Below, in pieces: positions 16,878 through 20,826 of a stretch of 21,238 nt of DNA (positions are counted from its first letter, which is position 1; every line of letters starts with the position of its first letter). This DNA comes from a virus. Position numbers and translations under genes: made by a program. The notes under the pieces were generated by a model that was not told the DNA's origin, did not search any database, and saw only the letters and a program-made list of their open reading frames with translations. The stretch spans positions 1 through 21,238 of IMG/VR virus record IMGVR_UViG_3300043449_000845. One strand, 5' to 3'.

Positions 16878-18757
16878 TTACGTTCTAGTTTGCCCTCTTT
16901 GTTGGTGACGTACCCCAACCCAGCAAAAAGGTTGTCATCCGTCTTTTTTCTTAACAAACGGCTTTTAGATGCGGTTCGTAAGTTAATCAAAGTTAGACCC
17001 CATGCGTCAACGCGGTCATACTTCCGCTTCCGGTTCTCGGGGTTGTAATTCGCCAAATCCGCCAACAAGTCTCCAAAAAAGTACTGCTCGATGTTGTTCG
17101 AGATGTCGTCATCCAAGATGCCAATCATTTGGTCTTGAATCATTTCGTCCATGTAAACGCCGTACTCAACGCTGTTCCCGGGCCTGGCTAATTTGCCAAT
17201 CTTGGGTGGTTTTTTCGCCAAAAACCTAGTCAGCTCCCGGTCCTGGAAGTAGGCAATCATTCGGGCTCTGTTCCTTTCAATCAGCACCGTGCAAGGGTTC
17301 TTCTTGCTGTAGTACTCCAGAGCCAATGCGCATTGCTCGTACGCTTCGTTCATATCCTTTGGCTTCGCCGTGTACTGCAGGACAGCCCCCTGGCTGGCCG
17401 TTTCTTCATCCAAAGATAAACCCTTCGCAATAAAGAACGACAGGTCTGACCCTGACCCCTCCTTCTTGGCACCATCCGTAGGGTCACACCCTGCCGCATA
17501 CAGCACGTCGTCCTCCGGTTCCTCACGCATGATGATATCCCCGTCCTCCTTTGGGATGAAGACGACTTTGTCGTTGGACTTGCGAAAGACACCACGCTTG
17601 AGCAGTGGTGGATTTGTGTCCAAGAATCCCATCCGGTTATTGAGCAGCTCCACATCAAAAGGTGACTCCCCAACCTGGATGAACATCTCCTCGGGTTCCA
17701 ATGGGTACTGCACCACGAAGTCGTAGTAACGCTTCATGGACTGCTTTTTCTTCTTCTCACGTTCGCTGAGGATGTACTTGAGCCCTTCAATCACGTTCTC
17801 GTTACCAAAGTCCCCCTCAATCATAAAACCACTCCACCCTGCGGCAAAGTATCTCTTCAGGCCATAGCTCTCCGCGTTGTACCAGAAGTCCTTGAAGTCG
17901 TCCCCATTCTCCGCTGCATCTCCCGCTGTACCGGCAAGGATGGGTACGCCCTTCCTTGTGATACCATCGTCAGCCGCCAATGCAGGCTCCGTGTAGGACC
18001 AGTTCTGTTTCAACTGCCCAGGCAACCACTTGCCAGGCTCTTCGTACACCACCATACGCATACCGGCACCCTCAAAGGATGTCGGCTCCGGAGAACGCCC
18101 GAAGATGACTGAGTTCAGTCCCACCTTCTTGATGTTCCCATCCTTGTCGCGCACTTTCTTGGAAAGGTCCAGCCTGGACGCTGAGTTACCCGCCAGTGAC
18201 GTCGCCCGGAGGAAAGCCGGTAGGTTGTTGTAACCGGTCTTCAGGACGTCATTCATGAACTTCTTCATGTCCTCCTCGGTCTTGGACGTAAAGCCAATCT
18301 CCGAGTACGGGTTGTGAATTGCTGTGCAGTACATGGCGTTAGCCAGGCTGTACGACTTACCCCAACGTCTCCGTCCTCCCAAAATAACCCCCTTGCCGGT
18401 GTTGTCCTCGTACAAGTCAGAACCACCGTAGAGGCACGACTCAATCAAGTTGAAGAACTCGGCATTGCAACGCCGAAACTCCGGGGAGATAAGACCTCCG
18501 TTCTTGGATTTCATCTTCCAGAAGTAGGTGTACATGTACATCATCCCACAGATGCCGTTGTAGCCAAACCTAGTCCTTCGTATCTGCTCATGCTCCCACT
18601 TGGCTTGCTCCGTCTTGTTGGAGAAGCTCGGGATGATCATACGCTGAGGCTTGTACGTAGACATCTCCAAGGCACCAATCTTGTCAAGGTAGTGCTTGAC
18701 CCGATCGTTGACATCGTAAGCCTGGTTGTACAGAAAGTCAATAAGGCTCTGCTTCAT
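16874..18757 (-). CDS. terL: Terminase large subunit, 627 aa
   Basis: This is the DNA-packaging motor. The N-terminal ATPase shows a Walker A, GGRRRWGKS (residues 127-135), and a Walker B, MVVYEE (235-240), with the catalytic Glu at the end. A coupling motif, GTAGD, lies at 276-280. The C-terminal RNase H-like nuclease shows GCDPTDGA (423-430, metal-binding Asp425 and possibly Asp428), VLIERNR with Glu494, and YDRVDAWG (Asp581 and Asp584). All key residues are present, so the enzyme should be active in ATP-driven packaging and in cutting concatemers. It overlaps the upstream small gene and the downstream portal gene by 4 nt each (ATGA), giving coupled translation. There is no Shine-Dalgarno. 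Length is normal for a large terminase. Confidence 0.95.
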   Translation of the reverse strand: MKQSLIDFLYNQAYDVNDRVKHYLDKIGALEMSTYKPQRMIIPSFSNKTEQAKWEHEQIRRTRFGYNGICGMMYMYTYFWKMKSKNGGLISPEFRRCNAEFFNLIESCLYGGSDLYEDNTGKGVILGGRRRWGKSYSLANAMYCTAIHNPYSEIGFTSKTEEDMKKFMNDVLKTGYNNLPAFLRATSLAGNSASRLDLSKKVRDKDGNIKKVGLNSVIFGRSPEPTSFEGAGMRMVVYEEPGKWLPGQLKQNWSYTEPALAADDGITRKGVPILAGTAGDAAENGDDFKDFWYNAESYGLKRYFAAGWSGFMIEGDFGNENVIEGLKYILSEREKKKKQSMKRYYDFVVQYPLEPEEMFIQVGESPFDVELLNNRMGFLDTNPPLLKRGVFRKSNDKVVFIPKEDGDIIMREEPEDDVLYAAGCDPTDGAKKEGSGSDLSFFIAKGLSLDEETASQGAVLQYTAKPKDMNEAYEQCALALEYYSKKNPCTVLIERNRARMIAYFQDRELTRFLAKKPPKIGKLARPGNSVEYGVYMDEMIQDQMIGILDDDISNNIEQYFFGDLLADLANYNPENRKRKYDRVDAWGLTLINLRTASKSRLLRKKTDDNLFAGLGYVTNKEGKLERK

Positions 18758-19233
18758 GTGTGGAAGTCGTCAATTGCTGACATGCCACCCACTTCGCTGT
18801 CCTGTGGTTGCTCCATGTTCATCTCGTTATTGATGAGAAGCTCGATGGCCTTGCGTTGCTTGGTGAGGTCTATGAGCGAAGCGGAAAGCTTCTTGATCTC
18901 GTCAGCCTCTAAGCCGGCCGCATTCTTGAGTCGTTTACGAATCTCGGAGAGAGCCGCTTCCAAAGCTTCCAGTGACTCCCTTTCGGAGCCAATGCCCTGC
19001 ATCTCGTAGTACGCTTCGATGTACTTGTCCATCTTGTCCTTGCGGATGGACGCCACAGAGCCAATGGCTCGTTGGTAGCGTTCATCTGGACCTAGGTTCT
19101 TGTAGGGAGACTTCCAGTCTGCGTAGAGGGCTACGAACTTGAACTCGTCCGATGTGATGCCCTTGAACTGCGGAAGGATGGAAAGGTGAGGGTTGTCGTC
19201 AAAGACGTCTTCTTGACTTATCTTAAATAGCAT
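18754..19233 (-). CDS. Terminase small subunit candidate, 159 aa
   Basis: It lies directly before terL with an ATGA overlap, the usual place of the small terminase, which recognises the phage genome for packaging. Residues about 28-62 (DEFKFVALYADWKSPYKNLG, then ERYQRAIGSV) form a helical N-terminal unit of a type I recall next to terL in Bacteroidota phages. Residues about 84-135 are a long Lys/Glu/Leu helix (LEALEAALSEIRKRLKNAAG), likely an oligomerising coiled coil, followed by a flexible acidic tail. No clear helix-turn-helix can be read, so TerS is inferred from position, size and helical content. The start at 19233 lies only 8 bases after a hairpin and directly after TTATAGTGT. A leader that short would make the mRNA nearly leaderless if that element is a promoter. 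Confidence 0.75.
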   Translation of the reverse strand: MLFKISQEDVFDDNPHLSILPQFKGITSDEFKFVALYADWKSPYKNLGPDERYQRAIGSVASIRKDKMDKYIEAYYEMQGIGSERESLEALEAALSEIRKRLKNAAGLEADEIKKLSASLIDLTKQRKAIELLINNEMNMEQPQDSEVGGMSAIDDFHT

Positions 19234-19242
19234 ACACTATAA
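19234..19242 (-). promoter_or_regulatory. Candidate promoter element before the terminase operon
   Basis: The 9-mer TTATAGTGT directly abuts the ATG of the small terminase candidate and is identical to the one at 12031-12039. If it works as a -10 box, transcription would start at or just after the start codon. It could also be a post-transcriptional site or coincidence in an AT-rich gap. Confidence 0.25.
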
Positions 19243-19264
19243 ACCAAAGCAAAACGCTTTGGTT
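19242..19264 (-). terminator. Hairpin (9-bp stem) between the 250-aa gene and the terminase operon
   Basis: On the minus strand AACCAAAGC, loop GTTTT, GCTTTGGTT makes a perfect 9-bp stem. Only a short TTTA follows, so as an intrinsic terminator it would be weak. It lies after the duplicated gene end and 8 bases before the next start, so it could also act as an mRNA 3'-end stabiliser or a processing site. Confidence 0.5.
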
Positions 19265-19343
19265 CTTCAACTAGTAGTATAATCGTACTGAAAGCATTGC
19301 TTTTCTTCAACTAGTAGTATAATCGTACTTGGAGCATAGCTCC
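19263..19343 (-). repeat. 40-bp tandem duplication of the 3' end of the 250-aa gene, with hairpins
   Basis: Bases 19263-19289 and 19303-19329 are identical over 27 nt and exactly 40 apart. The left copy is intergenic and the right copy contains the last codons of the 250-residue gene. Each copy is joined to a 13-nt hairpin, at 19291-19303 (AAAGC-AAT-GCTTT on the minus strand) and 19331-19343 (GGAGC-TAT-GCTCC). The intergenic copy still reads KAMLSVRLYY-stop, against GAMLQVRLYY-stop in the gene. It therefore looks like the remnant of a related gene's end, not a random repeat. Confidence 0.9.
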
Positions 19344-20063
19344 TACAAGCAAACCATTAGTGAGGTCTGTACCATCGTACGACTCAATGGCGATGCGTGC
19401 ATCAGTGCTCCGGTATGCTTTAAACCACAATGCCGTCGTGATTGGGTCAATGTAGTTTCCGTTTTGCAATGTAATGTTCAAAGACCCATTGCTTGCTGGG
19501 AAAGCACCTGCGCCCTTGAGGGTTGTCGAAATGGACCCGAAAACCAAGTTGTATGTGCCTGTGGATACGTATGAGGCGCTAACGTTCTCGGAAATTTCGT
19601 TCTTGATTACAGTAACGGTTGGCGCTGTTGCTCCAGACTGAGTGAGTAGGCAAACAAACTCGGCATATCCTTTATCGGCAGCAGCTGCAGCACTAACAAT
19701 GGATGGCAGGGTCGTAGCAGTTGTGAAAACGATGGGAGCCGTTGCTGGCCAATTAAGCTCCACGCGCCTAACCGATGTGTCGTTGTATACTTGAGCCAGG
19801 TAGTCTTGGTTTACAAGCACTTCTTCTTTAGTCCAGAGAGCTCCATCGACCCGTGTCGGGGTTCCAATGGATACCAACCCAAAGCCTGACTTGACAGTCT
19901 CCAATGTGTTGTTCGCAATCCTAGAACTCCCGTCGCTGAGCACCAATAACGTCTTCGTGGTTTGCGTAGTATGCGCATAAACCACCTGGTTCTTGTTAAT
20001 GGCGCCAGCAGAGTCTGGTGCACCAGCCAATGTCTGAAACGAGAAGTTGAATAGTTGGCTCAT
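19311..20063 (-). CDS. Putative virion surface/fibre-like protein, 250 aa
   Basis: The protein is beta-type, rich in Thr, Ala, Ser, Val and Gly, with few charged residues and no Cys-rich or catalytic motif, as in capsid decoration or fibre proteins. The N-terminus has MSQLFNFSFQTLAGAPDSAG, and the middle has an Ala-rich stretch (SIVSAAAAADKGYAEFVCLL) followed by TVTVIKNEISENVSASYVST. The C-terminus ends LLVGAMLQVRLYY, and this end is duplicated below the stop codon. The gene follows the 236-residue gene with 6 bases between. No Shine-Dalgarno precedes its ATG (CTTAATCCAAC). I do not recognise the family. A head-fibre or decoration role is inference from composition and from location next to packaging genes; a tail-fibre part is an alternative. 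Confidence 0.75.
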   Translation of the reverse strand: MSQLFNFSFQTLAGAPDSAGAINKNQVVYAHTTQTTKTLLVLSDGSSRIANNTLETVKSGFGLVSIGTPTRVDGALWTKEEVLVNQDYLAQVYNDTSVRRVELNWPATAPIVFTTATTLPSIVSAAAAADKGYAEFVCLLTQSGATAPTVTVIKNEISENVSASYVSTGTYNLVFGSISTTLKGAGAFPASNGSLNITLQNGNYIDPITTALWFKAYRSTDARIAIESYDGTDLTNGLLVGAMLQVRLYY

Positions 20064-20069
20064 GTTGGA

Positions 20070-20780
20070 TTAAGGAAGAATAGTTGCAAGTGCCGTAGTG
20101 GTGGCCAAAACCAAGTTGTCAGGAGTGTCAAGGTAGACTTCGGTGATTACGCTTGCCACTGAAGCGTAAGCCGTATCGTTGGCAATGGTGCAGGCCGTCT
20201 TAACAAACTTGCGCCCAATTACGCATCCATTTGTTCCGGACGCATTGGTTAGTATCTGGCGATTGTTGATGAATCGCAAAGGAAAAGCAGCTGAAAGGTA
20301 TTTTACGGCACTTGCCCCCTGAGTGTTTGCCAAGGTAACGGGCGCATTTGTAATAGCAAACTCGTAGCACTTTCCGTTGAAAACATACTGGACGTTGGTT
20401 GCTCCAGTACCAGTTGCGGTTGTAAGGTAAGCGAGAGCGATGTTTTGAACATTGATGACGAAAGTACCCGTAGCCGTAGACACTCCGCTCACTGGAGCGT
20501 CGTACTTCCCAATGCCACTTACCGTAGAAGTAACAGTAATAAAGGCGGCTGTACCACCAGAGTTCCCTACAGCAACATCCGCAAAAGAGCCCGTAGTAAT
20601 CGTGGCAACACGTTCCGCTCCAACGGACTGGTCAAAGAACTCGACATATCTGTTGTCTCCCGTGCCAGCGTAGGCCCACTTGAAATCATCCGTGGAAATA
20701 GCGCACTCACGAAGCGTATTGCCCGTTAATGCTGTGCCGTTGTTATTTACTACCTCGGTAAAACGAATTGTACTTGCCAT
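20070..20780 (-). CDS. Putative virion structural protein, 236 aa
   Basis: The product is Thr/Ala/Val/Gly-rich and beta-type, and resembles the 250-residue neighbour in composition but not in readable sequence. Residues about 60-125 look like an immunoglobulin-like or jelly-roll unit (GGTAAFITVTSTVSGIG, then TGTFVINVQNIALAYLTT), followed by NVQYVFNGKCYEFAI near 131. The C-terminal third has the positively charged CVIGRKFVKTACTIANDTAY. No signal peptide or transmembrane segment is present. The start has an A-rich leader (AGAACTAACAAAACT), and a gap of about 46 bases separates it from the upstream gene. The pair with the 250-residue gene probably forms a two-gene unit for surface components. 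No known family is recognised. Confidence 0.72.
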   Translation of the reverse strand: MASTIRFTEVVNNNGTALTGNTLRECAISTDDFKWAYAGTGDNRYVEFFDQSVGAERVATITTGSFADVAVGNSGGTAAFITVTSTVSGIGKYDAPVSGVSTATGTFVINVQNIALAYLTTATGTGATNVQYVFNGKCYEFAITNAPVTLANTQGASAVKYLSAAFPLRFINNRQILTNASGTNGCVIGRKFVKTACTIANDTAYASVASVITEVYLDTPDNLVLATTTALATILP

Positions 20781-20826
20781 AGTTTTGTTAGTTCTGAAAC
20801 ATTAACAATACGGCCTTGGCGATGGT

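What the first reader, a model, noticed from the sequence alone, without database searches (positions are those of the whole stretch)
19263..19343. Duplicated C-terminal coding end of a structural gene left in the intergenic gap
The last codons of the 250-aa gene, its stop and the next 8 bases occur twice, exactly 40 bp apart. The downstream copy is out of frame with the gene yet still reads KAMLSVRLYY-stop against GAMLQVRLYY-stop. Two of the changed codons are synonymous (GCT/GCA, CTC/CTT). A fresh slip duplication would not show codon-wise divergence next to 27 identical bases. I infer the remnant of a second, related gene ending in M-L-x-VRLYY, left when fibre-like genes were exchanged by recombination at a shared 3' end. 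If so, this end is a swap point for surface-protein modules.
Basis: partly seen in the sequence, partly recalled or inferred. Interest (0 to 1): 0.6.

Follow-up and report, generated by a model that had tools for sequence, protein, structure and literature searches.

The report
Stranded stub of a swapped phage fibre end
The gap behind a virus fibre-like gene holds a 40-base leftover of the end of another version of that gene, a scar from the swapping of receptor-binding tips that is common in bacterial viruses; it is a neat case but of an ordinary kind.

Summary
The repeat is real: 27 identical bases (AGTACG...TAG + TTGAAGAA) occur twice, 40 bp apart, on the minus strand (19263-19343). Relatives explain it. 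In 22 related IMG/VR records the gene before the 159-aa gene has a shared N-terminal part and at least four C-terminal types (...RLYY, ...KFFG/A, ...IYFG, ...REFSF/REQQF). These types are scattered over the tree of the flanking genes as if at random (10 changes; shuffles 11.1). Record L027 has a full-length gene ending NAMLSIRLYY-stop, followed by the same stem-loop. The window's downstream, out-of-frame copy plus its stem-loop match L027 at 66/70 bases, although the fibre genes themselves are saturated (61% identical; 19/69 fourfold sites). The flanking gene is 95% identical to L009 and 71% to L027. The downstream copy is therefore most likely the stranded end of an L027-type allele, and the in-frame copy belongs to the gene now present. 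Relatives' gaps are 22-39 bp; the window's 77 bp equals L027's 37 + 40. No relative carries two full-length genes or a repeat array. The order of events is unresolved. New member of a known kind.

The parts
19311..20063 (-). 250-aa fibre-like gene: N-terminal part shared with relatives, C-terminal beta domain (about 133-250) ending GAMLQVRLYY
   Evidence: ORF; family alignment; C-terminal domain modelled at block pLDDT 68-93 apart from residues 181-190; BFVD matches include annotated tail fibres, PDB look finds phage tailspike C-terminal domains, Z 4-7.5
19303..19343 (-). copy 1: in-frame gene end, GAMLQVRLYY-stop-TTGAAGAA
19263..19303 (-). copy 2: out-of-frame stub of an L027-type gene end, KAMLSVRLYY-stop-TTGAAGAA
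   Evidence: with the rest of the gap it matches the end of the L027 gene at 66/70
19303..19329 (-). 27-nt identical tract, first copy
19263..19289 (-). 27-nt identical tract, second copy
19244..19262 (-). stem-loop CCAAAGC-gtttt-GCTTTGG, terminator-like but with only a weak U run, identical to that of L027; other relatives carry differently sequenced stems here
18754..19233 (-). 159-aa downstream gene, conserved right flank of the exchange
   Evidence: 95% DNA identity to L009, 71% to L027
20070..20780 (-). 236-aa gene before the fibre gene; it lies in the same low-identity block (about 19234-20790) between highly identical flanks

Best explanation
The window is from a tailed phage distantly related to phages of Bacteroidota, whose fibre-like gene exchanges its C-terminal, probably receptor-binding, module between strains. 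Shown: the gap still holds the last 11 codons (stop included), the 8 trailing bases and the stem-loop of an L027-type allele, while the gene in front of it is a different allele with its own end. Inferred: an L027-type end arrived in this backbone, then the gene body was replaced, and the new 3' junction fell about 40 bp short of the old gene end instead of replacing it. The most economical version is a 40-bp tandem duplication of the old end, followed by a crossover at the shared VRLYY-stop tract in the first copy; the alternative is direct imprecise (microhomology) joining. The stub probably has no function: its frame is closed by a TGA just upstream and the real stop precedes it.
For: Copy 2 differs from L027 at 1 of the first 15 nt, copy 1 at 7 of 15. 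Copy 2 through to the next ATG matches L027 at 66/70, the fibre gene's last 100 codons at 53% (Fisher p = 8e-12), and fourfold sites across the gene at 19/69, i.e. saturated. The right flank is 95% identical to L009 and 71% to L027. Window gap 77 = L027 gap 37 + 40; other relatives 22-39. Module types are scattered on a well-supported flank tree: 10 changes, shuffled mean 11.1, as low in 42 of 200. L026 and L027 are sister flanks with different modules. One gene per record, no tandem paralogue. The same C-terminal domain occurs on unrelated N-termini in L063 (33%, E 4e-10, ends LEVRVYP) and weakly in Flavobacterium elemo phages (ends IEIRVYN).
Against: Only one relative (L027) carries the matching end. 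The stub is short (41 nt). The 27-nt tract is identical between the copies while L027 differs at 3 of these 27 positions, which fits an in-situ duplication better than a simple leftover. A misassembly of two co-occurring strains cannot be excluded without reads. VRLYY-type ends are similar throughout the family, so part of the likeness is by descent.
Confidence: 0.78

Rival explanations
1. Plain replication-slippage duplication of the gene end, followed by point divergence of one copy; no module exchange involved.
For: Head-to-tail spacing of exactly 40 bp and 27 identical bases; such duplications are common.
Against: All six differences fall in 15 of 42 nt (P 0.001). The diverged copy is the in-frame one, and its divergence from L027 (7/15) matches the saturated gene body, while the stub and stem-loop stay 94% identical. 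That step in identity needs recombination. No relative has a repeat array.
Confidence: 0.13
2. A structured RNA element: three stem-loops (GGAGCtatGCTCC, AAAGCaatGCTTT, CCAAAGCgttttGCTTTGG) separated by identical 27-nt spacers, kept by compensatory change and acting in termination or processing between the two genes.
For: Two base pairs differ on both sides between the copies and remain paired; only 8 of 192 synonymous encodings of GAMLQ and 16 of 288 of KAMLS give a perfect stem.
Against: The array exists only in this record. L027, L012 and L007 lack the stem at this site, and their peptides cannot encode it. The RNA fold of the whole region has z = -1.5. The window holds 40 perfect 5-bp/3-nt-loop stems anyway.
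Confidence: 0.04
3. Assembly artefact: two co-occurring strains with different fibre alleles joined in one contig.
For: The record is an IMG/VR virus contig, and the relatives show that strains with different alleles circulate.
Against: The junction TTGAAGAA|AAGCAATGC has only a few bases that could be shared by both parents, too short for a usual k-mer join, and the window is otherwise open and syntenic with relatives.
Confidence: 0.05

Closest known systems
Mosaic phage tail fibre / tailspike genes (conserved N-terminal anchor, exchanged C-terminal receptor-binding module), e.g. Alteromonas phage A5 sharing its host recognition module with distant phages (PMC10579305, abstract); older cases in P2/Mu/T4 phages from my own knowledge
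   Same: Shared N-terminus, different C-termini, exchange between otherwise similar genomes, module found in unrelated phages
   Different: Here a short end of the replaced allele is still visible behind the gene; the phage group is uncultured and its receptor is unknown
Relaxed homologous recombination of phage genomes by Rad52-like recombinases (PMC3945230, abstract only)
   Same: Short imperfect shared tracts (VRLYY-stop, stem-loop, start of next gene) could serve as crossover sites
   Different: The recombinase of this phage was not looked for
Tandem slippage duplication (VNTR-like)
   Same: Head-to-tail copies, 40-bp period
   Different: Two copies only, copies of different allelic identity, absent from all relatives

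Membership tests
Mosaic tail-fibre-like adhesin gene | Conserved N-terminal part with different C-terminal modules among close relatives | tested here: met
   four C-terminal types
Mosaic tail-fibre-like adhesin gene | Module type does not follow the phylogeny of flanking genes | tested here: met
   10 changes on the flank tree vs shuffled mean 11.1
Mosaic tail-fibre-like adhesin gene | C-terminal domain with fibre/tailspike fold | tested here: inconclusive
   17 BFVD hits at E <= 1e-3, among them annotated tail fibres; best PDB looks include phiAB6, Pam1 and Dettilon tailspike C-termini, but Z < 8; no Pfam or PHROGs family
Mosaic tail-fibre-like adhesin gene | Binds a host receptor / located on the virion | not testable with these tools
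   no cultured close relative of this phage group found
Simple variable-number tandem repeat | Copy number varies among relatives | tested here: not met
   no relative has a second unit; gaps 22-39 bp
Diversity-generating retroelement target | Reverse transcriptase in the genome | tested here: inconclusive
   no RVT_1 match in 14 relative records, controls ring, but all records may be incomplete; template repeats not searched
Structured RNA element (copy-1/copy-2 stems) | Stem conserved among relatives | tested here: not met
   copy-1/copy-2 stems absent in L027, L012, L007; the stem-loop at 19244-19262 is a separate feature

The most novel reading that the evidence does not exclude
The region from the fibre gene's VRLYY-stop through the stem-loop to the next start codon is a dedicated exchange boundary in this phage group, where modules and their stem-loops are swapped as cassettes at a preferred site, and the hairpin-bearing stub marks an intermediate of that process.
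Probability: 0.08. Interest if true: 0.5.

Novelty: new member of a known kind. Interest (0 to 1): 0.3.

Why it matters
It is a readable scar: the identity of the previous fibre allele can be named from 41 leftover bases, and it points to a 1.5-kb locus in an uncultured phage group where probable receptor-binding tips turn over independently of the tree of the flanking genes. That locus tells where to look for host-range determinants in these phages. The principle itself is well known.

Tried and rejected
Search for the exact 25-mer in IMG/VR: no other record. TACTACTAGTNGAAGAAC gave four chance hits in unrelated genes plus the L027 contig. The junction pattern gave one chance hit (L065). Pfam and PHROGs give nothing for the fibre proteins. 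A scan of bacterial genomes with the C-terminal alignment found no relative. Distant homologues of the 159-aa gene (L058, L059, 40%) have no fibre gene before it. The PDB Foldseek search itself gave no match at E <= 0.001, and the N-terminal half is modelled poorly, so LytTR-like matches to residues 1-130 were not used. Hairpin/RNA reading considered and set low. DGR considered: no reverse transcriptase found. The genome search cannot draw relatives for a virus record.

Full report
Observation. The repeat is as described. Two copies (19263-19301 and 19303-19341, spacing 40) share 27 identical bases on the minus strand and differ at six positions, all within the 15 nt before that tract's coding part. 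The first copy met in the direction of transcription is the true end of the 250-aa gene; the second lies behind its stop in another frame. In the stub's own frame a TGA precedes it, so it encodes at most RKAMLSVRLYY (sequence).

What the gene is. The window holds terminase, portal and structural genes of a tailed phage: PHROGs hits for terminase, portal and a virion structural protein, and a terminase 22-25% identical to those of uncultured human-gut phages and Flavobacterium phages. The 250-aa protein has no Pfam or PHROGs family. In relatives found through the downstream 159-aa gene its N-terminal part is shared, including by the 427-433-aa types (36% over residues 2-175), while the C-terminal part comes in at least four types. 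The modelled C-terminal domain is beta-rich, with the repeated codons forming the last strand. It resembles annotated viral tail fibre proteins and, below the trust limit, tailspike C-terminal domains. 'Fibre-like' is therefore likely but not proven. The same domain, with ends LEVRVYP and IEIRVYN, sits on unrelated N-termini in L063 and, weakly, in cultured Flavobacterium elemo phages.

The stub has a source. L027 has a full-length gene ending NAMLSIRLYY-stop-TCGAAGAACCAAAGCGTTTTGCTTTGG. From copy 2 to the next start codon the window matches it at 66/70, and the 37 bases behind the stop at 36/37. Over the gene itself the two are 61% identical with 19/69 fourfold sites equal, i.e. saturated, and 53% over the last 100 codons; the step at copy 2 has Fisher p = 8e-12. 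The in-frame copy 1 differs from L027 at 7 of 15 nt, like the rest of the gene; copy 2 at 1 of 15. The flanking 159-aa gene goes the other way: 95% to L009, 71% to L027. The window's gap is 77 bp; L027's is 37 bp, exactly one 40-bp unit less, and all others are 22-39 bp. So an L027-type gene end with its stem-loop sits in an L009-type backbone behind a gene body that is neither.

The locus is an exchange locus. Per-60-nt identity to L008/L009 is 85-100% upstream of about 20790 and mostly 85-100% again from 19233 on, but 30-85% between; the low block holds the 236-aa and 250-aa genes. On the tree of the downstream flank (2,300 nt, 23 rows) the C-terminal type changes 10 times against 11.1 for shuffled labels. 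L026 and L027, sister flanks, carry different modules. The stem-loop behind the gene tends to go with the module: CCAAAGC in window and L027; GAAACGG-like behind REQQF/RTQQL/RTQTF-type genes in two clades; CCAAGAC behind both RLYY and KFFG types of one clade. So the 3' boundary of exchange is mostly between stem-loop and next start codon, and sometimes at the gene end.

Mechanism. Shown: stub and stem-loop are L027-like, gene and backbone are not; one gene per record; no repeat arrays. Inferred: replacement of the gene body left the old end behind. The 27 nt identical in both copies, including three sites where L027 differs, favours a local 40-bp duplication of the old end before the new module recombined into the first copy. 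A donor end identical over 27 nt joined imprecisely upstream of the old end is the alternative. I cannot separate these.

Rivals. Slippage plus divergence fails to explain why the gene side is saturated while stub and stem-loop are 94% identical. An RNA element is unlikely because the small stems exist only here. Misassembly is unlikely but untested without reads.

Verdict. It is an ordinary kind of event in phage fibre genes, unusually legible.

Noticed in passing
window 19244-19262 and gaps of L007-L028: A stem-loop ends about 7-8 nt before the start codon of the 159-aa gene in many relatives with different but compensating stem sequences (CCAAAGC/GCTTTGG, CCAAGAC/GTCTTGG, CTAAGGC/GCCTTGG): terminator or translation-control element, partly linked to the fibre module type.
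   Followed up: partly
window 20070-20780: The 236-aa gene before the fibre gene is also low in identity between otherwise highly identical flanks, so the exchanged block spans two genes.
   Followed up: partly
L009 2683-3963, L017 2677-3975, L026 2683-3963: The 427-433-aa alleles carry an extra C-terminal domain (GGVIFHVD...DWVLPS...WASNQ...REQQF) that looks by eye like a DUF1566/C-type-lectin-like domain but matches no Pfam family.
   Followed up: no
window 19303-19343 and 19263-19303: Both variable halves form perfect 5-bp, 3-nt-loop hairpins with two pairs changed on both sides; about 4-6% of synonymous encodings would do so for each. Probably chance, unexplained.
   Followed up: yes
L058, L059: A 40% identical homologue of the 159-aa gene stands in another phage group with different genes in front of it and no fibre gene of this family.
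   Followed up: no
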